DNA of 46,032 nucleotides from Verrucomicrobiota bacterium (GTDB lineage: Bacteria; Verrucomicrobiota; Verrucomicrobiia; Limisphaerales; JADLHS01): contig JANXWY010000110.1 in the NCBI GenBank assembly GCA_025350905.1, positions 1 through 46,032 on the forward strand, in the 5' to 3' direction. Of the stretch, positions 7,801-40,750 are shown piece after piece. Every line of letters begins with the position of its first letter. Position 1 is the stretch's first letter. Both the position numbers and the translations under genes were made by a program. The notes under the pieces were generated by a model, which did no database searches, was not told the DNA's origin, and saw only the letters and a program-made list of their open reading frames with translations.

Positions 7801-8669
7801 CGGCGACGATACGCCATCAGACAAAGCGCCAGCATCGCCACCGTGCCAATGGTGATGCAGCGCTTCGCATCGGCCCGGATGATGGCCGCGTTGTCCACCG
7901 CCATGCGATGCCCGCCCGTGAGCGCGACGTGCACCCCGGGAAAATGTTGCTCCACGGCGCGCGCCACGCGCAACAGATCCTGGACCAGCGCGGTGCTGGC
8001 GCGGGAATCGGCTGAGCCAAATTTCGGTTCGGCCATCAGCAACACGTGCCGACCGTCGCCACTCGTAATGTGGCCCGCCACGATTTGGGCGCCCCCAAAA
8101 CCGGTTTGTAGCGGAAGCACCTTCGCCAGCACCAGGGCGCTGCTGTTGATCGGATCGGCAGCGACCACGTCCTTGAGCACCATGCCTTCCGGCCCGGCGA
8201 GTTTGCGGCGCATCGTCGTCAGATGCTCGCGTACGGCCGCGGGATCGAGTTTCGGTTCCAAGGCGCGCGCATCCGGTTCCGTGAACAGATTGGGCAACGC
8301 GCCCGTCAGAAAATCGATCACCCGACCCTGGCCGCCGACTTCGATTTCGTACAGGATCCGCACAAAATTCGTATTGGCGGAGAGGGCGGCAAAAACTTCA
8401 TCCCCGGCGCGCACGAGCGTTTCGGGATCGTCGGTGTTAATACCCACGTCAACATAGACGCGGTCAATTTGGCGGAACTTGCGCAGGGCATAGCGGTATT
8501 CATCCACTCGCTGGTCGTGACGTGGGAGCATGTCGAGGATGTCTTCCTCCAGATTTATCCGCAACGAGATCACCACCCCGACCACCGTCAGCAATAGCAC
8601 CGCGGCCAAGACCAGCCACCGGTGGCTCACCAGCCAGAGATAGAGGCGTGTGTAGAGATTGAGTTTCAT
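4839..8669 (-). CDS. Trifunctional MMPL/RND exporter - lysophospholipid acyltransferase - SAM methyltransferase fusion
   Basis: The 1276-residue protein has three modules. Residues 1 to about 790 form an MMPL-type RND exporter: an N-terminal transmembrane segment, a periplasmic loop, a multi-helix block, then a second loop and block. Residues of about 820-1070 are a PlsC-like acyltransferase with NHQSAVD (His899-x4-Asp904) and FYPEGTR (Glu968). Residues of about 1075-1276 are a class I methyltransferase with motif I DLGCGYG (Asp1110-Gly1116). The start at 8669 is an ATG overlapping the preceding gene's TGA (8666-8669); an open frame continues upstream but has no similarity. This triple architecture is known from flexirubin/aryl-polyene loci. 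It suggests that lipid acylation, head-group methylation and transport to the outer envelope are linked. It is the last gene of the minus-strand operon. Confidence 0.9.
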   Translation of the reverse strand: MKLNLYTRLYLWLVSHRWLVLAAVLLLTVVGVVISLRINLEEDILDMLPRHDQRVDEYRYALRKFRQIDRVYVDVGINTDDPETLVRAGDEVFAALSANTNFVRILYEIEVGGQGRVIDFLTGALPNLFTEPDARALEPKLDPAAVREHLTTMRRKLAGPEGMVLKDVVAADPINSSALVLAKVLPLQTGFGGAQIVAGHITSGDGRHVLLMAEPKFGSADSRASTALVQDLLRVARAVEQHFPGVHVALTGGHRMAVDNAAIIRADAKRCITIGTVAMLALCLMAYRRRWLALVTFVPSFFGTLMAGVVLALWQEHLSAIALGFASIAIGVTVDYAIHVIYHLDDAASSDHPTIGRHLSTLVFPVSIGVVTTIAAFLVMTGSPMHGYQQLGILGAIGVIFSSVFALVILPLLVPVAKKGGQPPLWLTQWWERYFEWESPRRGWLLAMVVLMTVGTGYGVRRLRFEGEIAKLNGITTATRQDDALINHTWGEALGMTLVVARGATPEAALEQNDRAAEILAHDPAVAAVYSLSAVCPSLATQAANLQRWRAFWTPAKRADLRQTLAQVGAELGYRDDAFAKFWENVEGTPAPVTLELFRGTPLEQALTERVALSPNDNAVSTLVKLEHRAQVRKMREALPGLIVLDGQDFAGHIAGLAKSSLRNFMLWTGVAVAGLLLLSLASLELVVITLVPIALGLVWTFGVMGWLGLPIDLMNSIFVIFIIGVSEDYSVFMVMTRLDEWRGRPRHTAVASASVFISALTTIFGFGVMVLADHPVLFSMGTTVLIGMGFAFVATLVLTPMCMDLLLFRDPPRGAPRWWHVLGTLWVILHLGGSQLFLYYCLRPILKIFSPRTADDQLRRATRWLARGVVKGMPFGKLEFQKITRENFSPACIVISNHQSAVDVMLVVSLPGDVRQTAKKRVFDAPMLGVGCKLLGHVMVEPNAPQTTLQRCRERLAGGACVHFYPEGTRSPDGFVQRFHRGAFELAFELNQEILPVIICDSNAAMPRDAYWFEPFHTTVRALPRVTPQNFDYSQGVGPLMKHCSAIVRQGLQAQLDEINTPRVVRRKVGRLYRYQGVFIEQFVYWKLKGDPMFAVLDRVVPRQGFILDLGCGYGLATHWLACFTDDRTFLGLDYDEDKIRVAQRSAPDHPRLRFESGDLLEREFPTCDAILLLDVLHYWSAAKQQLILNRARQALRPGGRLVLRDGARAESAAHQRVQRWEKFATLVGMNRTKEGLHFQTVAELEAMLRRAGFARWELEAGAGQDSNVMLVAWV

Positions 8670-26542: not shown

Positions 26543-27706
26543 ATGGCCAGCATCGTTAAACGGAAAAAATCCCAATTCTGGACGGCCTGTTTCGCCAGCC
26601 GCGACGGTCGCCAACTCAAGCGTTCTACCAAATCGACCGATAAGAATCAAGCAATGGAAATCGCCATCGAGTTCGAGCGGGTGGAACGCAAGGCGATGGC
26701 GGGCGCGCTCACCTCTGCGCAAATCAAGAGGGTGCTGAACGACGTTTCCGAAAAAGTCACGGGCGACACGCTGATCGCACCCACCACCGAAGTTTATTTG
26801 ACCGAATGGCTGGCAGGGGTCGGGGCGCGCGCCACCGAGGCGACGGTGGAGCGCTACACTCATTCCGTCAAACTCTTCCTCGCGCATCTGGGCGACAAGG
26901 CGCAAAAACCGGTTACGGCCGTCACGCCGCGCGATGCCGAGGGCTTCCTGACCGGGCGATTAAAAGCCGGGGTCGCCCCCAAAACCGCGATCGTTGATTT
27001 GAAGACGATCAACATCGCGTTCCGACGGGCGGCAACCTATGACATCATCCTGAAGAATCCCATCGCCACCGTGCGGCCGCCCCGGGAAGATTCCTCGGAA
27101 CGGGCGGTCTTCACTCAGGAGGAGGTGCAAAAACTCGTGACCGCCGCGCCGACCGTCGAATGGCAGACGCTCATTCTGTTTGGCTATTTTCTGGGCGCAC
27201 GGCTCCGGGACTGCGTGCGGATGACCTGGGACAACGTCAAACCGGAAACCGGAGTGATCGAATATCAGCAGCAGAAAACCGGCAAGAAGGTTACCGTGCC
27301 CATGCACTATCATGTGATCGAACACATCCACTTCCTCGCCACCTTCGGCACCCACGGCTTTCTGTCTCCGAAATTGGCTGGCAAGCTGTCCGGCGGCCGG
27401 CGTGGCCTGTCCGAAGGTTTCAAGCGCATTGTGATCAAGGCGGGGCTGGATACGATGACCGTGCCAGGGAAGGGAATCCGGAAATTCTCCCGCCACTCGT
27501 TCCATTCGTTGCGCCACAGTTTTAATTCGGCGCTGGCCAACGGCGGAGTGCCCGAAGATGTGCGTATGAAGTTGACCGGCCATGCCTCCAAGGTGATGAA
27601 CAACCGCTACACGCACTTGAATGTGGAGACGCTCAAAAATGCTATGACGACGATGCCGTTATTCGGCCCAACCTCGGCCAAGGGAACGCCTGGAAACCAC
27701 GAATAG
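26543..27706 (+). CDS. Tyrosine recombinase / integrase
   Basis: The 387-residue protein has an N-terminal arm-binding-like domain, a SAM-like core-binding domain (about 80-165) and a C-terminal catalytic domain. All catalytic residues are present: Arg220 in GARLRD, a Lys in QKTGKK, His321-x2-Arg324 in HSLRH, His347 in LTGH and nucleophile Tyr356 in RYTH. The family integrates or excises elements at specific att sites, often in tRNA genes. The tRNA-Gly fragment at 26415-26446 is an obvious candidate site. No excisionase is recognised. The length is full, so this integrase may still work, although the rest of its element cannot be delimited in the window. Confidence 0.92.
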   Translation: MASIVKRKKSQFWTACFASRDGRQLKRSTKSTDKNQAMEIAIEFERVERKAMAGALTSAQIKRVLNDVSEKVTGDTLIAPTTEVYLTEWLAGVGARATEATVERYTHSVKLFLAHLGDKAQKPVTAVTPRDAEGFLTGRLKAGVAPKTAIVDLKTINIAFRRAATYDIILKNPIATVRPPREDSSERAVFTQEEVQKLVTAAPTVEWQTLILFGYFLGARLRDCVRMTWDNVKPETGVIEYQQQKTGKKVTVPMHYHVIEHIHFLATFGTHGFLSPKLAGKLSGGRRGLSEGFKRIVIKAGLDTMTVPGKGIRKFSRHSFHSLRHSFNSALANGGVPEDVRMKLTGHASKVMNNRYTHLNVETLKNAMTTMPLFGPTSAKGTPGNHE

Positions 27707-27830
27707 CTCGCTTGCCCACGAAACGAGTGGTCACCGCCCGTGTCAGCGTCAGACAACCCACCGCGTTGGGAACGGTCTGGGCCATCGGTCAGCGCATAAA
27801 CCCAAGGGACCAGCCAAGCGAGAAGCTATT
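27702..27830. repeat. Imperfect inverted repeat between converging integrase and kinase genes
   Basis: AATAGCTCGCTTG at 27702-27714 is the inverse of CAAGCGAGAAGCTATT at 27815-27830, apart from a 3-nt insertion. The arms overlap the integrase end and reach the kinase stop, enclosing about 100 bp. It could be a bidirectional terminator with a long loop or an old recombination scar. It is weak evidence for either. Confidence 0.4.
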
Positions 27831-30451
27831 CATTGCGGTTTGGTGCCGAAGGCGGATGGGATCGCGGTCGCGGGTTGGTCAAACCCTTCCAGTTGCTTCT
27901 GGTAGGCCGCGGCCTGGTCCGATCGTTCCGTAGCTTGGTAGAGGCGGACCACTCGCTGCAGTGCATCCTTGAGATAGGGCCGGCAGAGGTAGTTAATGCT
28001 GGCTTCGCGTTCCTTCATCCCTTCATAGCCGGCAACGAGTAGGGACTCGGCGGTCTCGAATTGTTTCTGCCCAAGCAAGGTGGCTCCGACCAGGCTCCGA
28101 CCACTAAAAGTGCGCCAATCGTCCGGGTTACTATTTTCCATCAGTGTCAGCGCTTCCCGGGCCAGGGGTTCTGCCTCGGCGAACTTTTCCTCCGCAATCA
28201 AAAGTCGGCTCAATTCGGTGAGGGTGCGGATACTTTCTTCATCCCCCGCCGGCAACCGTTTCGGCGCGCTCTGCAACCGCCCGCGATAAAGGTCTTCCAA
28301 CTCCGTCAACTTGCCCTGGCGCTGCAACAGGAAGGCTAGGCCATTAAAGGAGTAATTTACCTGAGGATGTTCGTTGCCGAGCAACTCGCGACTCCGCGCC
28401 AGCGCTGCGCGGCACAAAGTTTCCGCCTCCTCCAATCGGCCCTGCTCGCGCACCACCTCGGCCAGCTTCAGCAGCGAATCGCCATAAGCCGGACTCTTCT
28501 CCTTGTCCATTCCCAAGGCCAACGCTTCGCGGAAGACCGCTGTCGCATTGGTCAGATTGCCCCCCAATCGGTAGATGCGGCCGAGATTGTTGAGGGAAAC
28601 CAAAAAGTCTTGTGGCGCGGTGTCCCGTGATTTTCTTTGCATCGCCAGGGCCTCGAGTTGATAGGCTTCCGCTCCCTTCAGCCGACGCTGGTCGGTCAAG
28701 GTGTCCGCCAGACACGTGAGTGAATTGGCGACTTCGGGATGCTCGTTGCCGAACAAGGTTCTTCGCATGTCCAGTGCCTGGCGCTGCAAGGTTTCGGCCT
28801 CATATGTTCGGTCTTCCATGTTGAGGGCGTTGCCCAAATCGTTGAGCGACGCCGCGACCCACCGGTTGGTCTCGCCAAAACGTGCTTTGCGCACGCTTAG
28901 AGCCGCGCGGTACAACTCGGCGGCTTTCGAGAAATCTTCAAGTTGATAGTACGCGTTGCCGATGATGGTCTGCAGTTCTGCCTGAATTCCTGGCTGCGAG
29001 TTGAGGTCGGCAGCGACGCGCGCGGCGGTTTTATCCAGGGTCTCATGCAGATAGGGCGATTGCCGGCCTTGCGCTAACGCCGGGTTTAGACTCTCCAGCA
29101 TGGCCTTGAGAAAGCGGGCTACCGTCTGACTTGTATTTGCTTCTTCCTTGGCCGTTTGTTCCGCTTTCAAGGCGCGTTCATAGTTGGCTTTCTCCCGAAA
29201 GAAAAGCCACGTGGAGAGGCCCAATCCGATAACCAACGCAGCCATCACCGCAACCGCCGCTGTAACCGCAATCTTATTCCGGCGAACTAGTTTCTGCAGT
29301 CGGTAAAGTGTACTCGAGGGTCGGGCCATGACCGGTTCGTTGGCTAGGTGGCGTTGGATATCCATCGCCAATCCGTTGGCCGATTCGTAACGGCGCGTGC
29401 GAACTTTCTCCAGCGCCTTCATCACGATGGCGTCGAGATCGCCCTGCACCAATCCGGCCAGCTTCGCGGGGGAGGCTTTGAAGCGTTGGGTGACATCCGT
29501 GGTGTCCGCCATTCCCATAGTCCGCAGGCGTGCCGATGGTTTCGGGGGAGACTTTTCCCGGACCATCTGGCGCATCGCGTCCCTTCCGCCGGCCAGTAAT
29601 TCTTCCGTCACAAACGGCGTCTGGCCGGCCAGCAGTTCATAGAGCAAGACCCCAAGACTGTAGATGTCACTGCGCGTGTCAACGTCGGGACAGCCGAGAT
29701 CAGCTTGTTCCGGGCTCATGTACGCGGGCGTACCGAGGAATTGTTCCTCGGAGGTTACGGGGGCATTGTCGGTAAGCTGCTGGTCGTTGATGGCCTTGGC
29801 GATGCCGAAGTCGATGATCTTGGTCACCGGCACGCCGTCCTGAAGCGTAATCAGAATGTTCGAGGGTTTGATGTCGAGGTGGATAACGCCTTTTTGGTGG
29901 GCGTGCTGGATGGCGCGGCAAATCTGCATGAACAGTTCGAGGCGGGCGCGGGTGGAAAGATGGTTCTGGTCGCAATAGTCAGTGATCCGGATGCCTCGCA
30001 CCAAATCCATGACAAAATAGGGTCGACCGGTGTCCGTGGCGCCGGCGTCCAACACTTTGGCAATATTGGGATGGTCCATCAACGCCAAGGCCTGTCGCTC
30101 GGCTTCGAAGCGAGCGATGACCGATTTGGTGTCCCTGCCCAGCTTCATAATCTTGAGCGCCACTCGGCGGCGCACCGGGTCCTCCTGCTCTGCCAGATAA
30201 ACGAAGCCCATGCCGCCTTGGCCAATCAACTGCAGAAGTTTGTAGTGGCCAATATGGTCGCCCGGTTTCTCGACCAAGGTCAGGCGCTCGACGGTGACTC
30301 CCAAGCCCGGGTGGGCGCTCGCAGCAGGCTCGGCGCTGAGTTCGTCACCCAGGAGGATGGCCTCAAGCATCAGGCAATTAGCGCAGAGGGACTGCGTGCC
30401 GAAAGACGCCAGCGTCCCCCCGCATTTTTCGCATTGTCCTTCCGTTGGCAT
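27830..30451 (-). CDS. Ser/Thr protein kinase with zinc-ribbon-like N-terminus, one TM helix and TPR domain
   Basis: The 873-residue protein begins with CEKCGG and CANC, a small four-Cys zinc-ribbon-like motif. A Hanks-type kinase domain spans about 68-345: P-loop GQGGMG (77-82), Lys100, catalytic HLD with Asp193, Lys195 and Asn198, DFG with Asp214, and a SPEQ activation-end motif. A TM helix (VTAAVAVMAALVIGLGL, about 400-420) is followed by some ten TPR repeats outside the membrane. This layout is typical of kinases in Verrucomicrobiota and Planctomycetota that lie next to ECF sigma genes. It is downstream of the sigma gene on the same strand (172-bp gap), so kinase and sigma factor probably form one signalling unit. 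The signal sensed is unknown. Confidence 0.92.
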   Translation of the reverse strand: MPTEGQCEKCGGTLASFGTQSLCANCLMLEAILLGDELSAEPAASAHPGLGVTVERLTLVEKPGDHIGHYKLLQLIGQGGMGFVYLAEQEDPVRRRVALKIMKLGRDTKSVIARFEAERQALALMDHPNIAKVLDAGATDTGRPYFVMDLVRGIRITDYCDQNHLSTRARLELFMQICRAIQHAHQKGVIHLDIKPSNILITLQDGVPVTKIIDFGIAKAINDQQLTDNAPVTSEEQFLGTPAYMSPEQADLGCPDVDTRSDIYSLGVLLYELLAGQTPFVTEELLAGGRDAMRQMVREKSPPKPSARLRTMGMADTTDVTQRFKASPAKLAGLVQGDLDAIVMKALEKVRTRRYESANGLAMDIQRHLANEPVMARPSSTLYRLQKLVRRNKIAVTAAVAVMAALVIGLGLSTWLFFREKANYERALKAEQTAKEEANTSQTVARFLKAMLESLNPALAQGRQSPYLHETLDKTAARVAADLNSQPGIQAELQTIIGNAYYQLEDFSKAAELYRAALSVRKARFGETNRWVAASLNDLGNALNMEDRTYEAETLQRQALDMRRTLFGNEHPEVANSLTCLADTLTDQRRLKGAEAYQLEALAMQRKSRDTAPQDFLVSLNNLGRIYRLGGNLTNATAVFREALALGMDKEKSPAYGDSLLKLAEVVREQGRLEEAETLCRAALARSRELLGNEHPQVNYSFNGLAFLLQRQGKLTELEDLYRGRLQSAPKRLPAGDEESIRTLTELSRLLIAEEKFAEAEPLAREALTLMENSNPDDWRTFSGRSLVGATLLGQKQFETAESLLVAGYEGMKEREASINYLCRPYLKDALQRVVRLYQATERSDQAAAYQKQLEGFDQPATAIPSAFGTKPQ

Positions 30452-30623
30452 AAGTAAGTCCGTCCGGGGCCTGAAGCGGCTGTACGCCTAGTTGCGACGG
30501 ACCTTTCCATTCCGGCGTCGAATTATTTCCGGGGTTTCGTCGAGAACTCGCAACAGTGCGCGCACGACCACCCCGTATGCAGCCAAAACCTGACTGGCCA
30601 AACGCAGGCCGCCACGTGTCAGG

Positions 30624-31382
30624 TCATGAACTAATCACCGCCAGCAAATGGCGTAGTTCACCATCGATCTCGGCCGGATTAGTGACGGTCCGACCAACTT
30701 CTGCCCGCAAGATCTCGCCGTATTGGCGCCGCAGCCGGTGGACCGCCACCCGCAGCGAGTTGGGGCTCACGCCTAGTTTGAGGGCGATTTCGACTTGCGA
30801 CATCGTCGATGGGCCACCCCAGATAAATTCCTTAAGCGCTTCAAACTGTTCCAGGTTGTCGGAGGCCAGGGCTTGCTGCCGCAGAGCCCCAAGCGCATGA
30901 TCGAGCAAGGTCAACGCCCATTGCTTTTCGTAGGCGCGGTCGGGGGTCGCGGCGGAATCGGCGACTTGGGCGAGCCGGTGAGTCTCAGCGGTGGCCGATT
31001 GTTCCAACGATAGGAGCATGCGACCGCCGCCCCGTTTAGCCGCCTGGGCGTAATCCCATTCGTTGGCGAGAAAATTTTTGATCGAACTCAGCATGAAACA
31101 ACGTAAGCGCCCGCGTTTCGGGTCGGCCAGTCTGACGTAATCCTTTTCCAGGAAGCCGGCGAAGAATTCTTGAGTCAGATCCAGCGCGTCATCCTGGCTT
31201 TGGCTCTGCCGGCGGATGAAGGTGTAGACCGGTGGCCAATAAGTGCGGCAGAATTTCTCCAACGCCGAGGCGGCCAATGGCGCGGCCGAGTCGGAGGCCA
31301 CCAACACGACACTCCAGTGCGTGGTGGGGAACTCGGTGCCGGTCATTTGCCGTTTGAAGAATTCCTGATCGGACTGGGCCAT
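30624..31382 (-). CDS. ECF-family RNA polymerase sigma factor (Planctomycetes/Verrucomicrobia type)
   Basis: The 252-residue protein starts with the FPTTHWSVV motif seen in the sigma factors of this group. Region 2 has a DALDLTQEFFAGFLEKD block for core binding and -10 recognition, and KRGRLRCFMLSSIKNFLANEW matches the following helix. Region 4 near the C-terminus (MSQVEIALKLGVSPNSLRVAVHRLRRQYGEILR) is a typical helix-turn-helix. The ATG at 31382 (MAQSDQEFF) is preferred over 31424. No anti-sigma gene is adjacent; instead the kinase follows, and phosphorylation is the likely control. The 306 bp upstream contain no further gene except the IS5 remnant and presumably hold its promoter. Confidence 0.9.
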   Translation of the reverse strand: MAQSDQEFFKRQMTGTEFPTTHWSVVLVASDSAAPLAASALEKFCRTYWPPVYTFIRRQSQSQDDALDLTQEFFAGFLEKDYVRLADPKRGRLRCFMLSSIKNFLANEWDYAQAAKRGGGRMLLSLEQSATAETHRLAQVADSAATPDRAYEKQWALTLLDHALGALRQQALASDNLEQFEALKEFIWGGPSTMSQVEIALKLGVSPNSLRVAVHRLRRQYGEILRAEVGRTVTNPAEIDGELRHLLAVISS

Positions 31383-31688
31383 GTGGTTGCCTGCTGTGGA
31401 CCGGACGGATTTGGTATGCCGCATTGCTTAACACGGCAAGCAAATTCCACGGATTTATTTACGCGCAAGTGTATGGACCAGCACGAAGTGAAACTTCCGT
31501 CACCAATGGGAACTGGCGCAGCGCGTCGCACCCTTTGAAACTGCAATACCAATTGGCGCTTTGACGTGGGCTGCTTCGTGTTTGCGAGAGGTTAAAGACG
31601 AGCTCAAAAAAAGTTTCAAATATTCGGTAATGTTTGGCTGGTTTTGCTTTAGTACAATGGAGGAACCCAAAGTGTAGCGACCAATCTT

Positions 31689-32078: not shown

Positions 32079-35057
32079 ATGAAAACAACTTTCCAGCTGC
32101 TTGCGCTTGTTTCCTTACTGCCAGTAGTGGTGTCCGCCCAGATTAGGACTCCACCGCCACCACTGCCTCCGACCGACACCGCAGCTTCTGTTATATCGTC
32201 AACCCTTGAGATTCGCGACCGCGGCGACCACCACCGCGTCTGGCAGCGAGTGACGGTGGAGACCGACAATACAGGCAAGACCGTTTCCCGGACCAATGCC
32301 GCTTACACGGAATTGGAAACCGGGATGAATGTACGGCAGGCGGATGGCACGTGGGTCGAAGCCAGTGACGAAATCGAAATCGCCAAGGCTGGCGCGGTGG
32401 CCCGGAAAGGCAGACATCAGGTGATTTTCTCAGTCAACTGCAACTCTCCGGTGGCCATCGACATGTTGACTGCCGATGGAAAACGGCTTCAGTCACGAAT
32501 TCTAGGACTCGCATATTTTGATACGGCCACCGGACAAAGCGTGTTGATTGCGGAGATAAAGGACTCGGACGGCCATTTGTTAATGGATACCAAGAACGAG
32601 GTGATCTACTACGACGCGTTTACAGATTTCAAAGTTGATTTGAGATACCGAAATAGTAAAGCAGGGCTTGAGCAAGATCTCATTTTGCGGGAAGATCCGC
32701 CCTCCCCAGCATATTATAATTTAGACCCTGCGACGACGGTTTTGGAAGTTCTGACGGAGTTTTTTAACCCACCGGTGCCGGAGAAAAAGGCGCGATTGAT
32801 CAACGGAGTTACGGACGAGTTTTTGAATTTCGGCGATCTCAAGATGGGGACTGGTCGAGTATTTGTGATGGGCGCCGAGACGACCGACATTCCAGTAAGC
32901 AAGCAGTGGGGTACAGTGGAGGGGCGCACATTTCTGATTGAGGAAATACCGTATCAGGCTGTGGAACCACAACTTGACGCCTTACCCAAGCGAACGGCCT
33001 CCCTGAAGAGTTCCCAGGATGGCGTGCGGCATCAGGTTTCGATCAAGCGTCTCTTACCGCCGGTAAAGCAGGCGAAGAAGGAGATTGGACCGATGAAACT
33101 GGCCAGCGCCCCCTTGGACGGCAAAGGCGTGGTGCTGGACTACGTCACCGCGAGTAGCGCGACCAACTACACCTTCCAGTGTGACACCACTTATTACGTG
33201 AGTGGAACCGTCAACCTTTCAGGAACCAATACAAGTTTTGAAGGCGGCACAGTTATCAAGTATTCACCGACCAATGCCCCAAAACTGAATATCACCAGCC
33301 CGATTACGTGGCTGGGCAGTGCATTTAGGCCGGTGGTCATGACCGGCAGCAGCGATAACACCGTCGGTGACACCATCAGTGGCAGCACAGGCAATCCCAA
33401 CACCAATTACTTTGCCAATCCGGCGCTTTATATCGACGGCACGGCGGCGGGCACGAATGCCATCCTGCAAAACCTACGGATTTCCTATGCCCAAAGCGCC
33501 ATTGTCTTCAACGGGAAAACGGGGCACATCGTCAGCCATGCGCAACTGGTCAACTGTGCCAACGGGATTGCGGCTACCAATGCGGAATTCAGCCTGCGTA
33601 ATGCGCTGCTGTATAACGTAATCACCAACTTCAACGGCTCAACTTCCACGGGCCGTTGTGAACATCTAACCGTCGATACGGCGAACTGGCTGAACAACAA
33701 CAATGCCATCACATTAACGATGACCAACAGCCTGTTGTTGGGTGTGACCAACGTGGGGACCTTCACCAGCAACACAGTCAACATAGTAACCGCCTCTGCT
33801 TTTCAGACGGTTGGCGCGGCCAGCCATTATCTGGCGACTGGTAGCGTTTATCGAAATGTGGGCACGACCAATATCAATGCCACTTTGGCAAAAGACTTGA
33901 AGAAACTCACGACGTATCCACCGATTGAGCGCACTAACGATTTCACCGTGAATACAGTCCTTTCGCCCCAAGCCGGCCGGGACACAGACGCGTACGATTT
34001 AGGCTATCACTATGATCCACTGGATTACGTCGTCAGCGGGAGGAACCTTACCAATTCGATATTGACCCTTGCGAACGGCATAGTCCTTGGGACTTACGGT
34101 GCCCTCAGCGATTCAGGAATCACCCTGCGCAATGGCGCAATTTTGAATTCGGCGGGCTCCGCTTCCTACCTAAACTGGATTGTCCGTTACAACACGGTGC
34201 AGGAACAGAGTACGACCAACTGGTCAGCCAGCACGGTGGCGCCTGCCATCGCGTTTACGGTCGCCAGCACCCCGGAACCCCAAGCTCAATTCACATTTAC
34301 CGGCTGGTCGCTGCTGGGCAATAATGGGAAATTCTTTAATAGCAACAAAGAGCTCATCGTTCCTTTGGCCTTCAAGGATTGTCAATTCGCGGGCGGGGGG
34401 GTTAGCCCAGTGGACGTTTCCGTTGCGTTTACGAATTGTTTATGGGAACGGGTGGCCATCGACCTCTCGCTGAGCAAAAGCATTATTTCCGATCGGTATT
34501 TTTTTAACAATTTGTTTTGGCGTGGCTCGCTAAACCTTGCCAATACGGGGACTAAGACTTGGATCCTCAAAGACAACCTGTTTGATCAAACCGCTCTGAA
34601 CAGTCAGTCCGGCTCGATCACCCACAGCAACAACGCGTACGTCAATGGCGGCAACCGGTTGACCCCGACCAATGTCAACGACGTGGTCATGAGTAACACA
34701 CCAATTTACCTGACCAACTACCTTGGAAGATTTTACTACCCGACCAACGGCGGTTTGTTGAGCATGCTCATCAACGCGGGTAGTCGCAACGCGACTAATG
34801 CCGGACTCTATCACTACACCACCACCACCAATCAGGTAAAGGAGGCAAGTTCAACCGTTGATATTGGTTTTCATTATGTGGCCACTGATACAAGCGGTGT
34901 TCCAATTGACACCGACAGCGATGGAGTTGCCGATTATTTAGAAGATCGCAATGGGAACGGAGCGGTAGATACAGGCGAAACGGCTTGGACGAACGCTGCC
35001 GACTGGGGACTCAGCGTCATTATCACAAAGCCACGCCCTAGCGCGATCCTCCCTTAA
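32079..35057 (+). CDS. Large secreted protein with beta-helix-like repeats and Ca-binding C-terminus
   Basis: The 992-residue protein has a signal peptide (MKTTFQLLALVSLLPVVVSA). Its first 300 residues are a mixed domain of unknown type. From about residue 360, Asn/Thr/Ile-rich segments repeat at about 20-25-residue intervals (NAILQNLRISYAQSAIVF, GIAATNAEFSLRNALLYN), as in right-handed parallel beta-helix surface proteins. Near the C-terminus, DTDSDGVADYLEDRNGNGAVD is a calcium-binding thrombospondin-3/EF-hand-like motif. The protein is probably exported and surface-located. It is 59 bp upstream of the RHS gene on the same strand, so the two may be co-transcribed and act together. The function is unknown. 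Confidence 0.72.
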   Translation: MKTTFQLLALVSLLPVVVSAQIRTPPPPLPPTDTAASVISSTLEIRDRGDHHRVWQRVTVETDNTGKTVSRTNAAYTELETGMNVRQADGTWVEASDEIEIAKAGAVARKGRHQVIFSVNCNSPVAIDMLTADGKRLQSRILGLAYFDTATGQSVLIAEIKDSDGHLLMDTKNEVIYYDAFTDFKVDLRYRNSKAGLEQDLILREDPPSPAYYNLDPATTVLEVLTEFFNPPVPEKKARLINGVTDEFLNFGDLKMGTGRVFVMGAETTDIPVSKQWGTVEGRTFLIEEIPYQAVEPQLDALPKRTASLKSSQDGVRHQVSIKRLLPPVKQAKKEIGPMKLASAPLDGKGVVLDYVTASSATNYTFQCDTTYYVSGTVNLSGTNTSFEGGTVIKYSPTNAPKLNITSPITWLGSAFRPVVMTGSSDNTVGDTISGSTGNPNTNYFANPALYIDGTAAGTNAILQNLRISYAQSAIVFNGKTGHIVSHAQLVNCANGIAATNAEFSLRNALLYNVITNFNGSTSTGRCEHLTVDTANWLNNNNAITLTMTNSLLLGVTNVGTFTSNTVNIVTASAFQTVGAASHYLATGSVYRNVGTTNINATLAKDLKKLTTYPPIERTNDFTVNTVLSPQAGRDTDAYDLGYHYDPLDYVVSGRNLTNSILTLANGIVLGTYGALSDSGITLRNGAILNSAGSASYLNWIVRYNTVQEQSTTNWSASTVAPAIAFTVASTPEPQAQFTFTGWSLLGNNGKFFNSNKELIVPLAFKDCQFAGGGVSPVDVSVAFTNCLWERVAIDLSLSKSIISDRYFFNNLFWRGSLNLANTGTKTWILKDNLFDQTALNSQSGSITHSNNAYVNGGNRLTPTNVNDVVMSNTPIYLTNYLGRFYYPTNGGLLSMLINAGSRNATNAGLYHYTTTTNQVKEASSTVDIGFHYVATDTSGVPIDTDSDGVADYLEDRNGNGAVDTGETAWTNAADWGLSVIITKPRPSAILP

Positions 35058-35116
35058 ACAATTCGGCGAACGAATGATATTTGCTTGATAAAAACATCCC
35101 TCGGGACTGAAACCTT

Positions 35117-38100
35117 ATGAAACGGATCAACGAACACGACGGGAGCGAAGCGGCTGATGCCATCGAGCCAGCTGAAGCAGCGGGATCAAATGTGGTTTTG
35201 GTGACCCCAAATGGCGTTCCCACGGTGCGGCGACCACCGCGGCACATCCATGTGGGATTAATGCTGATCGTGCTGGTGGCTGGTTGGCGCATGGGTTTAG
35301 TGAATGTCATCCAGGTATTCGCGCAAGGGCAACAAAATTACTGCCGAAACCTGTTCGAGGATTGGGATGATGGCGAGGACGATGACGATGATGATAACTG
35401 TGATCCGCCGTCATCCAATGACGGCCCGGAAGGCGGAGGCAGCCCCTGTGGGATGCCGGTCTGGCGCGTTTCCGAGCCGTTTATCAATTTGTGGCTCCAC
35501 GACACGCCGCTACAGTACCGGCTCGCTGGTGGACGTTGGATGCCACTCAAACTAAGTTACAAGCAACGTTCAGATATACGCGATACGAATTACGCCGGTT
35601 TCGGGCCAAACTGGGAATGCAACTGGATTACGTTGTTGCGCGTGACCAACGGAGTGGCGAAATTCAGCCAGCGTCTTCCAGGCGGGGGCGCGGTACAACT
35701 CGACACATATACACCCGTTTACGGGAGCGCAAAGCGAGGGACCATGGAAGGAGGTGGAATTTATACTACACTTGACTCCCCGGCGGGAACGAAGAGCAAA
35801 TATGGGATCCTTGACCAATATCAGGGCCTTGCTGGCGTGACCAACCAGTTTTTGTCCGAACGGCAGGACCGATACGGGCGATCCACGCGTTTCAATTGGA
35901 TTAGCTACACCAACGGGGGCCAGACTTATAAGCTCCTTTCTCAAGTCGTTGATCGTGATGGCCGCTCCAGCTCGTTGGCGTACGATAATGGCTCGTTTCC
36001 GAGCCTGGTGACTTCGGTCACTGATCCCTACGGTCGGAGCGCCACTTTCACGTATAACGAAAGAGGCTGGCTGACAAACATCGTCGACATGGCCAACATG
36101 CCTTCGTCGTTTCAGTACGATACGAACGGTGTAATCACCAACTTGCACACGCCGTATGGCGACACGAGTTTCCGGTACTGGGGTTCCTCGGCGAGTATCG
36201 ACCGGGCCATCGAGATTACAGAAGCCGATAGCAGTCAGCAGCTTTACGCCTATCGCGACAATTGCCTAGGCGCTGAAGGGTCAGTGGCCGGCACGTATGC
36301 CACCACGGATACCGCGGCTTACAACCGGAATAGTTTTCACTGGAATCGTGCGCAGTTTGCGGCGCTGAGTGCACAAGCCCGGACCAACTACGTGGATATG
36401 CCGCGGGCTGATTATTTCAAAGGTTCGCTCAAGCATTGGTTGTTAAAGTTCGCCGGTGGCTTTCAACTTAACCCGGTTGTCTCGGATACACTGGGTGCGA
36501 TGGCTGGACCGGTTTTACAGCCGGCTCCGAGTGACGTTCGGAGCGGACAAGTCTATTGCGAATATCAAGGGCAGGGTGCGGATCCCCGCATGATTGGTAC
36601 CCTTAAACGGGTGACCAAGATCGTCTGGAACGGTACGGACTATACGCCGGGAACCAGTACCGCGATTGACATCGGGCGCAATGACTGGGGACGGCCGACC
36701 AACATTACCTATCACTACCAGGGAAACGATGTGGCGTACGCGAACAACTTTGATACCGATGGCCGCATTCTCCAGACGGTCATCGGCCCACGAGGCGAAG
36801 CCATCCGCGGGTACGGCTATCATGCCGTCATCACCAACCTGCTCACTTCCGTAACGAATGCTTTAAGTGAAGTGCTCCGTTACACCCATGACACCAACGG
36901 CATGAAGGTCACCAGTATCAGCTATCCGAGCGGGTTGCTGACCACCAATTTTTACTATACCACCGGGACGACCGGCTTTTTGTCCAAGACGATTGATGTT
37001 GGTTTTCGCACCAACTCGTACAGTTACACCAGCGGCAACGTTGCCATTCACACCAATGAGCTCGGTTTGATCACTACCAATTCGTGGGATAATTTGAACC
37101 GGCTCATCGCCACGAAGTACCCCGATGGCAGCTACACCTCGAACGTCTGGGACAAGCTCGACTTGGTGGGGGTGAAAGACCGGATGGGTTTCTGGACGCG
37201 CTACAAGTTCAATCTGGTGCGCCAACTCACGGCAGTCACCAACGCCAATGGCGCGGTGACGGAATACGCTTACTGCGGTTGCGGGTCACCCACTCAGGTC
37301 AAAGCATGGAATGGCGGTACGGCCCTGACCACCACTTTCGATTACAACCTCGCCGGGCAGTTGACCACCGCCACGTATCCCGACAACTACCAGATCAGTT
37401 ACACCTACGATGACCTCGAACGCATGCTCACCGCGCTGGACAGCAGCGGACGTCAGGTGGCGTTCGGGTACAACGATTACGACCAGATCACGGCCATTCA
37501 GGTGGGCAGCGGTGGGAACCAACTGTTCTGGGCAGTGCGCACGTTTGACGAATACCGGCGGCTGACCAACAATATTGATCGCAACGGGGTGACGACAACC
37601 AACCGTTACGACGTCTTGGACCGCATGGTGAACCGGCGCGTCATCGGCGCGCTGGGAAATCAGCTCTCAGGGTTGGAGTCGTTTGAATACAACGCCCGCG
37701 GGTTGACCAACGCCACCGATGCGCTGGGTAAAGTCACGCGGTTTGTGCGGGATCAACTGTCGCAGCCGTTGTACGAAACCAATGCCAACAGCGAGGTACT
37801 CGGGTTCACCTACAATCCATTCGGCCAGCTGTTGACGCTGACGGATGGCAAGAGCCAGACGACCCAATGGAAGTATGACAGTGAGGGCCGGGTGACGAAC
37901 AAGGTGGACGCGGCCAGTGCCGAGATGTTCCGCTACAAATATGATCCGAACGCCCGGCTGACCAATCGCTGGCAGGCGGGCGGCATCACCACCACGTTCC
38001 GTTACGACCCCGTGGGCAATCTGACGAACATCGTCTATCCGACCGCCAGCAGCATTGTGCTGCGGTACGACCTCCTGAACCGGCTGACCAACATGACGGA

Positions 38101-40048
38101 CGGCCTCGGCTCGACGGCCCTGGCGTGGACGGATGGAAATCAACTGGCCAGTGAAGACGGCCCGTGGGCCAGCGACACGGTGAGTTTTGTTTACAGCAGC
38201 CGGCAACGCAGCAGCCTGGCGGTGCAACAGCCCAATGCCACGGCGTGGGCGCAGAGCTATGGTTACGACACCTATCGCCGGCTGACCAACGTCACTTCAC
38301 CGGCCGGTGTGTTCGTCACCACTTACAAGGCGGTGTCGGCGGCGGGTGTGGACATGGCGGCGGACCTGGTGGCGCGACTGGAATTGCCGGGGGGATCCGC
38401 GATCACGAATCAGTTAGATGACTTGGGAAGATTGCTAGCAACGGTGCTTCAAAACTCCAGTCAATCAACTCTCAACTCCCATGGCTACGTGTACAACGAA
38501 GGTCATCAGCGCACCAACCAGACGTTCACGGCGGGGAATTACGTGGATTACACGTATGACAACATCGGGCAGTTGAAGACGGCCAAAGGCAAGGAAGCCG
38601 GGGGCACGACGCGGTTGCAGGAGCAGTTCGGCTACGGCTATGATGCCGCCTGGAACTTGAGCAAACGCACGAACAACGCGCTCATTCACACGTTCAACGC
38701 AAACAATCTGAACGAGCTGACGACCGTGACGCGGGCGAATAACTACACGGTGGCCGGGGCGGTGTCCGCCACGCCAACCAGCGTGACGGTCAAGGACAAC
38801 GCGAACTCCGCCGTGGCCGCGACGGTTTATGGGGACAACGCGTTTGCGCGGACGAACGTGACGTTGCTGGACGGAAACAACACATTCGTTGCTGTGGCGC
38901 AAGACAGCTTGAGCCGTAAGGACACCAACACGGTAACGGCCTATCTGCCCGCCACGGTCACGCACTACTACGATGCGCGCGGCAATCTCACCAACGACGG
39001 ACGCCGGGTGTTCTATTACGATGACGAAAACCAGCTGACGAGCGTGACGGTGTCGAACGCGTGGCGCAGTGAGTTTGCGTATGACGGGATGCTGCGCCGC
39101 CGCATCCGCAAGGAATATACCTGGCAATCCAGTGCATGGGTGAAGACCAACGAAATCCGTTATGTCTATGACGGGCGGCTCGTGGTGCAGGAACGCGATG
39201 CCAACAATCTGGCGCTCGTCAGCTACACGCGGGGCAATGACCTGAGTGAAACATTGCAAGATGCTGGCGGCATCGGTGGCCTCCTCGCGCGGACCGACAA
39301 TGGGCAGCTGATCGCAGGCAGTCCCCTCGCTCACGCCTATTATCATGCCGATGGCAACGGCAACATCACGGCCCTCGTGAACACGAACCAATTGCTCGCG
39401 GCGAAATACGCGTACGATCCGTACGGCAATCTCCTCAGCATGGCTGGCCCAATGGCCGAGGCCAACACCTACCGCTTCTCCTCGAAGGAATTTCATCCCA
39501 ATTCCGGCCTCGTCTACTACCTCTACCGCTATTACGAACCCAATTTGCAAAGATGGCTAAATCGCGATCCAATCGCTGAGAATGGTGGGTTGAATCTTTT
39601 TGCATTCATTGGCAACATGCCGACTGGGGCTATCGACCCGTACGGCCTCGACTGGAAGGATAAGTGTGCGAGCATATTCGCCGCGGCTGTCGCCTGGTGG
39701 AATACGATAACGGGAGATACTCCTGAGAAGATTGACCAACCGAAACCTCCCAACATAGAGCGACAAAAGCAGCAAGACAATGCTAACAAGGCGCCCAAGC
39801 CGCAACAACCAAAGTCTCCTGGTGGACCTGAGCCACCTAAACCGAAACTTCCTGAACCGCTAAAATTCCCAGAGACACCAAAAGGGCCGCCGCCTTTAGA
39901 AGGGCCAGTACCCAAGATTCCTTGGTACAGGCAGGGCCTACCGGATTGGCTGAAACAACCACCGCCGTTCCGCATGCCTTTCTTTTTTATGCCGCCCCAA
40001 TGGGATCCCGATTTTGGTAAGGATCCTGCGACGGGGTGCATGGCGTAG
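35117..40048 (+). CDS. RHS/YD-repeat protein with proline-rich C-terminal tip
   Basis: The 1643-residue protein has a predicted N-terminal TM/signal-like segment (about 37-65), then an unusual Asp/Glu-run linker (WDDGEDDDDDDN). The body contains dozens of YD-repeats (for example FGYNDYDQITAI and YDPLDY-like units). The conserved RHS core end is present: YDPYGNLLS, RFSSKEFHPNSGLVYYLYRYYEP, LNRDPI and finally DPYGLD at 1507-1512. The last 131 residues are strongly Pro-rich (KPPNIERQ, EPPKPKLPEPLK) and show no known toxin domain. RHS proteins form a shell that carries a variable C-terminal effector. The upstream partner is the secreted beta-helix protein; downstream is an orphan ORF in lower-GC DNA. 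Confidence 0.88.
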   Translation: MKRINEHDGSEAADAIEPAEAAGSNVVLVTPNGVPTVRRPPRHIHVGLMLIVLVAGWRMGLVNVIQVFAQGQQNYCRNLFEDWDDGEDDDDDDNCDPPSSNDGPEGGGSPCGMPVWRVSEPFINLWLHDTPLQYRLAGGRWMPLKLSYKQRSDIRDTNYAGFGPNWECNWITLLRVTNGVAKFSQRLPGGGAVQLDTYTPVYGSAKRGTMEGGGIYTTLDSPAGTKSKYGILDQYQGLAGVTNQFLSERQDRYGRSTRFNWISYTNGGQTYKLLSQVVDRDGRSSSLAYDNGSFPSLVTSVTDPYGRSATFTYNERGWLTNIVDMANMPSSFQYDTNGVITNLHTPYGDTSFRYWGSSASIDRAIEITEADSSQQLYAYRDNCLGAEGSVAGTYATTDTAAYNRNSFHWNRAQFAALSAQARTNYVDMPRADYFKGSLKHWLLKFAGGFQLNPVVSDTLGAMAGPVLQPAPSDVRSGQVYCEYQGQGADPRMIGTLKRVTKIVWNGTDYTPGTSTAIDIGRNDWGRPTNITYHYQGNDVAYANNFDTDGRILQTVIGPRGEAIRGYGYHAVITNLLTSVTNALSEVLRYTHDTNGMKVTSISYPSGLLTTNFYYTTGTTGFLSKTIDVGFRTNSYSYTSGNVAIHTNELGLITTNSWDNLNRLIATKYPDGSYTSNVWDKLDLVGVKDRMGFWTRYKFNLVRQLTAVTNANGAVTEYAYCGCGSPTQVKAWNGGTALTTTFDYNLAGQLTTATYPDNYQISYTYDDLERMLTALDSSGRQVAFGYNDYDQITAIQVGSGGNQLFWAVRTFDEYRRLTNNIDRNGVTTTNRYDVLDRMVNRRVIGALGNQLSGLESFEYNARGLTNATDALGKVTRFVRDQLSQPLYETNANSEVLGFTYNPFGQLLTLTDGKSQTTQWKYDSEGRVTNKVDAASAEMFRYKYDPNARLTNRWQAGGITTTFRYDPVGNLTNIVYPTASSIVLRYDLLNRLTNMTDGLGSTALAWTDGNQLASEDGPWASDTVSFVYSSRQRSSLAVQQPNATAWAQSYGYDTYRRLTNVTSPAGVFVTTYKAVSAAGVDMAADLVARLELPGGSAITNQLDDLGRLLATVLQNSSQSTLNSHGYVYNEGHQRTNQTFTAGNYVDYTYDNIGQLKTAKGKEAGGTTRLQEQFGYGYDAAWNLSKRTNNALIHTFNANNLNELTTVTRANNYTVAGAVSATPTSVTVKDNANSAVAATVYGDNAFARTNVTLLDGNNTFVAVAQDSLSRKDTNTVTAYLPATVTHYYDARGNLTNDGRRVFYYDDENQLTSVTVSNAWRSEFAYDGMLRRRIRKEYTWQSSAWVKTNEIRYVYDGRLVVQERDANNLALVSYTRGNDLSETLQDAGGIGGLLARTDNGQLIAGSPLAHAYYHADGNGNITALVNTNQLLAAKYAYDPYGNLLSMAGPMAEANTYRFSSKEFHPNSGLVYYLYRYYEPNLQRWLNRDPIAENGGLNLFAFIGNMPTGAIDPYGLDWKDKCASIFAAAVAWWNTITGDTPEKIDQPKPPNIERQKQQDNANKAPKPQQPKSPGGPEPPKPKLPEPLKFPETPKGPPPLEGPVPKIPWYRQGLPDWLKQPPPFRMPFFFMPPQWDPDFGKDPATGCMA

Positions 40049-40166
40049 ACAGTCGGGTTAAAGTGCAACGGATGTACTTGGTTGTGTCGGTTGAGCATAG
40101 ACTTGCAATGGCTGATGTTTTACATAAGATACCTAAATAGAGATTGCGCCTAACGCCCGGCTATTT

Positions 40167-40649
40167 ATGAATTTTCTGCGAAAAAGCATGGCGGATGTGA
40201 CTGCAGCATTACTGCACAGGCTACTACCAATCATTTCGCTCAGAGTGATGGGGCATGAACGCCGGTGGGTTGGCAAGTGCACCTTCTATGGACCAGTAGC
40301 TTTTTTGAACATCTGTGAGGAAGCGATGCATGTGTTGGACGAACGCGACCCTGCGCTCTCTAGGTCAATTAGGTTGCACAACTATGTATTCTGGTATGAT
40401 AGGAAGCGCCTAATACGTTTTGAAAAGCACTTTAGTATCAATGACGCATTCCAAGTTTGGGGAAGCTTGGGAATTGTTGCGATGTTAGTATACGCGCATT
40501 ACAAAACAGTGAGCTTTCAAGGGAAAGTTTTTCCGCTCTTCGAGCACACAGAAGTTCGCGGGCTCAATAAGGCGGTTCGCGCAAGAACCAAAACCTGGCT
40601 TATCATGAATGCCTCCCCGTTGGAATTGATTGAGTGCTTTGAAGATTGA
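40167..40649 (+). CDS. Unknown small protein after RHS gene, candidate cognate/immunity protein
   Basis: The 160-residue protein (MNFLRKSMADVTAALLHRLL) has no recognised family. A hydrophobic segment (WGSLGIVAMLVYAHY) lies at about residue 98-112, and the rest is mixed alpha-helical with many aromatic and charged residues. The gene lies 118 bp after the RHS stop on the same strand, in DNA visibly poorer in G+C than the surrounding genes, which suggests transfer with the RHS tip. By position it is a candidate immunity protein, but no similarity supports this. Confidence 0.5.
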   Translation: MNFLRKSMADVTAALLHRLLPIISLRVMGHERRWVGKCTFYGPVAFLNICEEAMHVLDERDPALSRSIRLHNYVFWYDRKRLIRFEKHFSINDAFQVWGSLGIVAMLVYAHYKTVSFQGKVFPLFEHTEVRGLNKAVRARTKTWLIMNASPLELIECFED

Positions 40650-40750
40650 ATGGGTGTCACAGAGCGGAACAAAACCGGCCAAGGGTGAGCGATTCAAAAC
40701 CGGCCACTCTGCGGTGAGATGGTTGGCTGCGTCACGAATCCGAGAGCCGG

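What the first reader, a model, noticed from the sequence alone, without database searches (positions are those of the whole stretch)
32079..40649. Three-gene module: secreted beta-helix protein, giant RHS protein and low-GC orphan
The secreted 992-residue protein, the 1643-residue RHS protein and the small orphan lie in a row on one strand. The orphan and its flanks are lower in G+C, as expected for exchanged RHS tip/immunity DNA. This is the best candidate in the window for an uncharacterised contact or delivery system.
Basis: inference. Interest (0 to 1): 0.6.

Follow-up and report, generated by a model that had tools for sequence, protein, structure and literature searches.

The report
RHS toxin with tail-matched targeting partner
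A bacterium carries a shell-like RHS toxin gene directly behind a secreted beta-helix protein, and in related bacteria the short tail of the protein in that position predicts which kind of RHS follows, which suggests a plug-in targeting scheme that nobody has yet tested at the bench here.

Summary
The beta-helix and RHS genes form a pair that recurs in one verrucomicrobial order; the 160-aa orphan has no relative in the genomes and plasmids searched.

The new point lies at the pair's junction. Secreted proteins directly upstream of these RHS genes end, at the stop codon, in one of two short tails behind Ca2+-type (TSP3/EF-hand) loops. In this survey tail A (xVxITxPxxxSxIP*) precedes only P0002-type RHS and tail B (VFTPLK*) only a second type: 21 and 20 cases, none crossed. 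The bodies are interchangeable: on the beta-helix body tree the tail switches 11 times and RHS type switches with it (8 of 8 independent pairs). LamG proteins, unrelated by BLAST, carry the same tails under the same rule. Third codon positions vary freely, so the peptide is under selection.

Best reading: an exported Rhs polymorphic toxin whose shell is recruited by the tail of a swappable targeting protein, with tip and immunity DNA exchanged downstream. Not shown: physical contact, tip toxicity (this tip is proline-rich and matches no toxin family), and immunity by P0003.

The parts
32079..35057 (+). P0001: secreted partner protein, 992 aa; signal-peptide-like hydrophobic start (peak at residues 5-19)
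   Evidence: relatives in 83 of 196 genomes sampled from the order at E<=1e-3, own included
32208..32978 (+). N-terminal beta-rich domain (residues 44-300)
   Evidence: AlphaFold2 model; no fold assigned
33129..34688 (+). two tandem parallel beta-helices (about residues 351-573 and 576-870)
   Evidence: 7dmk PL6 lyase Z 20.9, rmsd 24.8, 436 aligned; 1ee6 Z 15.7, rmsd 2.5, 170 aligned; Foldseek itself gave only 2 matches at E<=0.001, TM-scores 0.10-0.11 of the query
34908..34979 (+). two EF-hand/TSP3-like loops (residues 944-967)
   Evidence: pattern; no Pfam match for the window's own stretch
35007..35054 (+). class-A tail (residues 977-992) directly before the stop: proposed RHS docking tail
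35117..40048 (+). P0002: RHS protein, 1643 aa
35252..35326 (+). hydrophobic export or anchor segment (about residues 46-70)
   Evidence: signal-peptide-like starts in relatives by eye
35327..35452 (+). Asp-rich, Cys-containing linker before the cocoon
   Evidence: by eye
35453..39649 (+). RHS cocoon and Rhs core-associated self-cleavage region; DPYGL at 39635-39649
   Evidence: fold modelled only for residues 82-720
39650..40045 (+). variable tip, 132 aa, 31 of them Pro; no family match
40167..40649 (+). P0003: 160-aa orphan, low G+C; candidate immunity protein, unproven

Best explanation
The locus is a two-protein, Sec-exported Rhs polymorphic-toxin system. P0002 folds as an Rhs cocoon that cuts off and holds a variable tip. 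P0001 is its dedicated partner: an exported target- or surface-binding beta-helix protein that ends in Ca2+-type loops and a short docking tail that recruits only the matching RHS type. Tail plus RHS gene form one exchangeable unit that has been put behind many different bodies (double beta-helix or LamG), so targeting and payload can be recombined at two junctions: body/tail and core/tip. P0003 would be the immunity protein of the present tip. Shown: recurrent pairing, conserved tails, tail/RHS-type linkage, body swapping, tip variability, modelled folds. Inferred: export, physical docking, surface display, target binding, toxicity, immunity.
For: P0001-centred survey: where both could be assigned, tail A is followed by RA-type RHS in 14 of 14 and tail B by RB-type in 23 of 23 (one of the 14, L084, rests on a cut 471-aa ORF at 79 bits). 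RHS-centred survey: 21 of 25 RA genes lie directly behind an A tail (15 beta-helix, 6 LamG-type bodies) and 20 of 28 RB genes directly behind a B tail, none crossed; Fisher p 3.7e-12, which ignores relatedness. On the body tree tail class and RHS type each change 11 times; 8 of 8 independent pairs on starred branches agree, p 0.0078. Control: of 779 other ORFs of 200 aa or more, 2 match tail A and 3 tail B, all five P0001 relatives. Codon-position identity of the tails 0.57/0.59/0.33 (A) and 0.60/0.71/0.35 (B), 20 sequences each, all three stop codons in use: selection on the peptide. Ca2+-type loop in the last 130 residues of 46 of 46 tailed proteins. In L112 a P0001-like N-terminal part and an RHS are one 2715-aa protein. 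Tips: TNT, Tox-REase-9, Ntox28, Peptidase_M91 and others among 41 tips. Third-position G+C lower in tip than core in 23 of 26 tips; an ORF of 60 aa or more starts within 63 bases downstream in 21 of 26 (no chance control).
Against: No binding, export or toxicity data. Tail and RHS start are neighbours in DNA, so co-inheritance alone gives some linkage. The window's tip has no toxin match and is proline-rich; the orphan is 118 bases away and unique. 4 of 25 RA and 8 of 28 RB genes have no pattern-scored tail directly upstream: L133 and L194 none seen; L195 only 211 bases of upstream DNA; L129, L090, L135, L139, L140, L144 have another gene in between; L198, L199, L200 are B-like only by eye. 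Tail patterns were drawn up after seeing sequences and loosened. Loci came from ranked matches, not a random draw.
Confidence: 0.55

Rival explanations
1. The tail is only the 5' edge of a mobile RHS cassette that recombines inside the conserved Ca2+-loop coding DNA; it travels with the RHS but does not bind it.
For: In genome G087 the proteins L124 (tail A) and L076 (tail B) are 92-97% identical in two 40-column blocks shortly before the end and alike through the loops up to SGETDW, then have different tails. Tail and RHS are adjacent.
Against: The tail peptide is conserved while third positions vary, ends at the stop codon, and occurs on two body families without BLAST similarity to each other, so it probably has a function of its own.
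Confidence: 0.2
2. The tail is a sorting signal read by an export or anchoring machine that handles one RHS type, so both proteins are co-sorted without touching.
For: C-terminal position; two discrete classes; RHS proteins have signal-peptide-like starts of their own (by eye).
Against: G079, G087 and G093 each hold both classes, which would need two parallel machines; no such machine was looked for.
Confidence: 0.12
3. The RHS proteins are T6SS effectors and the upstream gene is incidental.
For: The genome has TssB-, TssC- and Hcp-like genes on another contig; the nearest solved folds are T6SS Rhs effectors.
Against: No PAAR or VgrG match in P0002; signal-peptide-like starts in relatives (by eye); tail-specific pairing with the upstream neighbour.
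Confidence: 0.05
4. This copy is a surface adhesin or a decayed toxin: the proline-rich tip is structural and P0003 is unrelated.
For: Tip stretch has the second highest Pro fraction of 41 tips and no family match; P0003 has no relative.
Against: The cleavage region is kept; most of the 41 tips match no family either, so a missing match is weak evidence.
Confidence: 0.25

Closest known systems
Rhs / polymorphic toxin systems (Zhang et al. 2012, PMC3482391)
   Same: RHS shell, DPxGL junction, variable toxin tips, displaced tip cassettes, small genes downstream. The paper mentions an RHS toxin of Pedosphaera parvula (passage seen).
   Different: Here an upstream partner ends in a tail that tracks the RHS type. 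No such partner was named in the passages seen (12 of 44 places); I did not read the whole paper.
T6SS Rhs effectors (RhsA 7q97, Tse5 8cp6, VgrG-Rhs 8qja)
   Same: Modelled cocoon fold of residues 82-720: 8qja_A Z 26.1, rmsd 3.0, 490 aligned; 7q97_A Z 22.9, rmsd 3.3, 492 aligned.
   Different: No PAAR/VgrG match in P0002; signal-peptide-like start; the neighbour is a beta-helix or LamG protein.
WapA-type and CDI (CdiA) surface toxins (recalled; papers seen only in search listings)
   Same: Exported toxin presented at the surface with exchangeable tip and immunity.
   Different: Here the presumed binding part is a separate polypeptide linked by tail class.
Dockerin/cohesin (recalled)
   Same: Works like it in principle: EF-hand-type loops next to a C-terminal docking element for a specific partner.
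   Different: No Dockerin match in Pfam; here the short tail itself tracks the partner.

Membership tests
Rhs polymorphic toxin | RHS/YD repeats and Rhs core-associated domain | tested here: met
Rhs polymorphic toxin | beta-cocoon shell fold | tested here: met
   by model, residues 82-720 only:
Rhs polymorphic toxin | self-cleavage region ending in DPxGL before the tip | tested here: met
   sequence match to that region of solved Rhs and TcC proteins; cleavage itself not tested
Rhs polymorphic toxin | tips exchanged between otherwise related shells | tested here: met
   41 tips, 8% mean column identity; 13 Pfam families at E<=0.01, each in one tip
Rhs polymorphic toxin | toxin domain in this tip | tested here: inconclusive
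   no Pfam or NCBIfam match for the window's tip
Rhs polymorphic toxin | cognate immunity gene downstream | tested here: inconclusive
   P0003 is in place but has no family or relative
T6SS Rhs effector | PAAR or VgrG domain | tested here: not met
   no such Pfam match in P0002 at E<=1
T6SS Rhs effector | T6SS in the genome | tested here: met
   VipB/TssC family match, 458 bits, on C235; TssB- and Hcp-like neighbours by eye
Two-partner secretion (TpsA/TpsB) | haemagglutination-activity TpsA domain in the beta-helix protein | tested here: not met
   no Pfam family at E<=1 in P0001; an Omp85-type TpsB was not searched for
Dockerin | dockerin domain | tested here: not met
   Pfam: whole P0001, its C-terminal stretch and eight other bodies
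Dockerin | binding to a specific partner | not testable with these tools
   needs a binding assay

The most novel reading that the evidence does not exclude
A plug-in Rhs weapon: payload shells are recruited by orthogonal C-terminal docking tails on interchangeable, separately exported targeting proteins (beta-helix, LamG and possibly others), so that one cell runs several targeting/payload pairs without cross-assembly.
Probability: 0.45. Interest if true: 0.8.

Novelty: new variant of a known kind. Interest (0 to 1): 0.62.

Why it matters
How exported Rhs toxins of Gram-negative bacteria that lack a T6SS adaptor are displayed and aimed is, as far as I recall, open. Two short tails that predict the RHS partner across unrelated bodies make it testable with peptides and purified proteins. 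If they bind, they are ready-made orthogonal connectors, and they would guide the annotation of many neighbouring beta-helix and LamG genes without known function.

Tried and rejected
Three-gene conservation: rejected; P0003 was found only here (none in plasmids). Weak profile matches set aside: phrog_11038 E 0.049 to P0003, PDC-M23B E 0.0017 to P0001, and NCBIfam CglD E 7.9e-5 to P0001 residues 935-970 at 20.6 bits against a cut-off of 400 (this is the Ca2+-loop stretch).

Programmed frameshift or one split gene: rejected as a general account. Stop codons vary, and the distance to the directly following RHS ORF runs from -169 to +288 bases with the first possible start codon. Signal-like starts were seen by eye in RHS proteins. 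One real fusion exists (L112).

An attC-like site at 40148: dropped. The exact match is single, and 20 of 100 shuffles had as many matches at up to 2 mismatches. Promoter and terminator scans were at chance.

Empty-site test with flanking genes failed: the PMT gene has no close relative in the family beyond one partial 38% match, and the upstream sigma-like gene belongs to a family with many copies.

A hypervariable face of the second beta-helix, seen in single pairs, is modest on average (0.53-0.55 in 721-800 against 0.60-0.73 in most blocks, with 281-360 as low, over 27 close pairs) and is not claimed.

The N-terminal domain 44-300 has no assigned fold; it was not modelled alone.

Left out of counts: L093 (same contig as L016), ORFs cut at their 3' end for tail class, RHS ORFs without their own 5' end. 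In one search the A-tailed L099 was missed by the pattern (its RHS is RA-type). RHS neighbours of genes without an assigned tail: weak RA for L096 (49 bits), L105 (52) and L143 (89), and RB for L090's second ORF and L157. Tree labels were set by hand. The body tree was a quick search: 34 of 77 inner branches starred, 24 open; group A needs 11 changes (at least 9 on starred branches), shuffled mean 14.0, as low in 12 of 500. One search used 20 of the 21 A tails (L127 left out as a near copy of L126) and 20 B tails chosen by hand.
Full report
What is there. Three ORFs lie in a row on the + strand at the stated coordinates. P0001 (992 aa) starts with a signal-peptide-like segment. It is modelled as a beta-rich N-terminal domain (44-300) and two tandem parallel beta-helices (about 351-870), with a low-confidence C-terminus (mean pLDDT 78.6, pTM 0.60, 29 sequences). 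Foldseek alone was weak (2 matches at E<=0.001). The second look matched a two-domain PL6 alginate lyase, 7dmk (Z 20.9, rmsd 24.8, 436 aligned), and single helices such as 1ee6 (Z 15.7, rmsd 2.5, 170 aligned). P0002 is an RHS protein whose residues 82-720 are modelled as the known Rhs cocoon (mean pLDDT 81.6; 8qja_A Z 26.1, rmsd 3.0, 490 aligned). Its cleavage region aligns with that of solved Rhs and TcC proteins and ends in DPYGL. The 132-aa tip is proline-rich and matches no family.

The pair recurs. P0001 relatives occur in 83 of 196 genomes sampled from the order at E<=1e-3, own included. In a phylum sample of 288 genomes only the own genome and two partial matches (25 and 32% identity) passed E<=1e-20. 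P0002 relatives occur in 36 of 97 genomes of the order at E<=1e-50, own included. One named relative is a Limisphaera genome bin of the Verrucomicrobiota (lineage shown); I call the order Limisphaerales from recall. In many of the loci fetched around these matches the two genes are neighbours on one strand.

Two tails. Stand-alone P0001 relatives end at the stop codon in one of two motifs, class A (...GLKVIITRPKNNSIIP*) or class B (...GLQVFTPLK* and close variants). Longer relatives run on into other sequence (of three scanned, one has Big_7 and LamG domains, one LamG, one no match). Of 31 long or partial rows, five have any RHS match in the ORF that follows, one of them the A-tailed L084. Where both could be assigned, tail A was followed by an RHS that best matches P0002 (type RA) in 14 of 14 and tail B by one that best matches three other RHS probes (type RB) in 23 of 23. 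Five more tailed genes had no RHS within 1.2 kb: L109, L173 and L166 lie at the edge of the DNA held, and in L090 and L135 another gene lies between.

The body is swapped. On a maximum-likelihood tree of the P0001 body (80 rows: 15 A, 26 B, 39 other; residues about 339-930, so without the tail), class A/B needs 11 changes. RHS type also changes 11 times, and in 8 of 8 independent pairs on starred branches the two go together (sign test p 0.0078; 36 rows bear both traits). In genome G087 the proteins L124 (A) and L076 (B) are 92-97% identical in two 40-column blocks shortly before the end, alike through the Ca2+-type loops, and then have different tails.

Another body family carries the same tails. 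Several P0002-type RHS genes have no beta-helix protein upstream. Six of these (L123, L125, L126, L127, L128, L193) follow a protein of another family that ends in tail A; the five scanned have Laminin_G_3 domains, and none matched P0001 at 38 bits or more by BLAST (best 60 rows shown). Members of this second group that precede RB-type RHS end in tail B: the 753-aa protein of L126 (A) and the one of L197 (B, cut at its start) share 56% identity over about 415 residues of the LamG body. Locus L126 carries an A pair and a B pair in tandem. Counted from the RHS side, 53 RHS genes with their own 5' end were examined: 21 of 25 RA genes directly follow an A tail and 20 of 28 RB genes a B tail, none crossed. 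Three more RB genes (L198-L200) have a B-like tail by eye, and L129 has an A-like tail one gene further up. Of 779 other ORFs of 200 aa or more, 2 matched tail A and 3 tail B, all five being P0001 relatives. The tails are conserved as peptides: third codon positions agree in only 0.33 (A) and 0.35 (B) of comparisons, against 0.57-0.71 at the first two, and all three stop codons are used. All 46 tailed proteins examined have an EF-hand/TSP3-like loop in the last 130 residues; Pfam finds TSP3_bac in five of eight other bodies scanned, in three of them above its cut-off, and not in the window's own stretch.

Tips and immunity. Forty-one tips share almost nothing (8% mean column identity), and single tips match TNT, Tox-REase-9, Ntox28, Peptidase_M91, a Tle1-like catalytic domain and others at E<=0.01. 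Displaced RHS ends lie downstream of main genes in L016, L126, L127, L129 and L133. In the own genome two such ends on other contigs lie near IS200-like transposases; Pfam confirmed the one in L116, the one in L118 was recognised by eye. Among 26 tips whose junction could be placed, third-position G+C is lower in the tip than in the core in 23, and an ORF of 60 aa or more starts within 63 bases in 21, without a chance control. In the window P0003 starts 118 bases after the RHS stop. Some RA proteins carry a Peptidase_C39 domain before the cocoon (L077, L091, L130), and in L112 a P0001-like N-terminal part and an RHS are one protein.

Reading. The simplest model is an exported Rhs toxin shell recruited by the tail of an exported binding protein. 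Shown are pairing, tail conservation, tail/type linkage and modularity; export, docking, display, targeting, toxicity and immunity are inferred. The main rival is that the tail merely travels with the RHS cassette; selection on the peptide argues that it does something, not that it binds. Limits: tails were defined after inspection, loci came from ranked matches rather than a random draw, and typing rests on four RHS probes.

Known or new. The parts (Rhs shells, variable tips, displaced cassettes) are known. Searches of the open-paper library for RHS with Verrucomicrobia, Pedosphaera, LamG, thrombospondin type 3 repeats and Limisphaera-type names (the last two found no paper) and two broader ones showed nothing of the partner or the tails in titles or abstract starts; of PMC3482391 I saw passages only. 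Subscription papers were not searched.

Noticed in passing
L190 (G000:C235) 5266-7887: TssB-, TssC- and Hcp-like genes in the window's own genome: at least part of a T6SS, on a 7.9 kb contig.
   Followed up: partly
L116 8877-11391; L118 7722-10927: Displaced RHS ends in the own genome, each near an IS200-like transposase (the L118 one by eye); may be how tips move.
   Followed up: partly
40671-40706: AAAACCGGCCA twice, 25 bases apart; 0 of 100 shuffles had two in the window. Possibly a mobile-element remnant just after the orphan.
   Followed up: no
40148-40161: GCCTAACGCCCGGC just before the orphan resembles the start of an integron attC site (recalled); no second half was searched for.
   Followed up: no
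L077, L091, L130: Peptidase_C39 domains in front of the RHS cocoon.
   Followed up: no
27830-31424: Ser/Thr kinase with TPRs beside a gene with a below-cut-off sigma-70 region 2 match; the latter's family has 10 matches in the own genome and 18 in one relative.
   Followed up: no
26543-27706: Phage-integrase-family gene about 4 kb upstream of the module.
   Followed up: no
L139, L140, L144: An ORF of about 290-340 aa sits between a B-tailed beta-helix gene and its RHS in these three loci.
   Followed up: no
L016 6788-11773: The RHS of this Limisphaera locus is broken into two ORFs (679 and 967 aa); left as it is.
   Followed up: no
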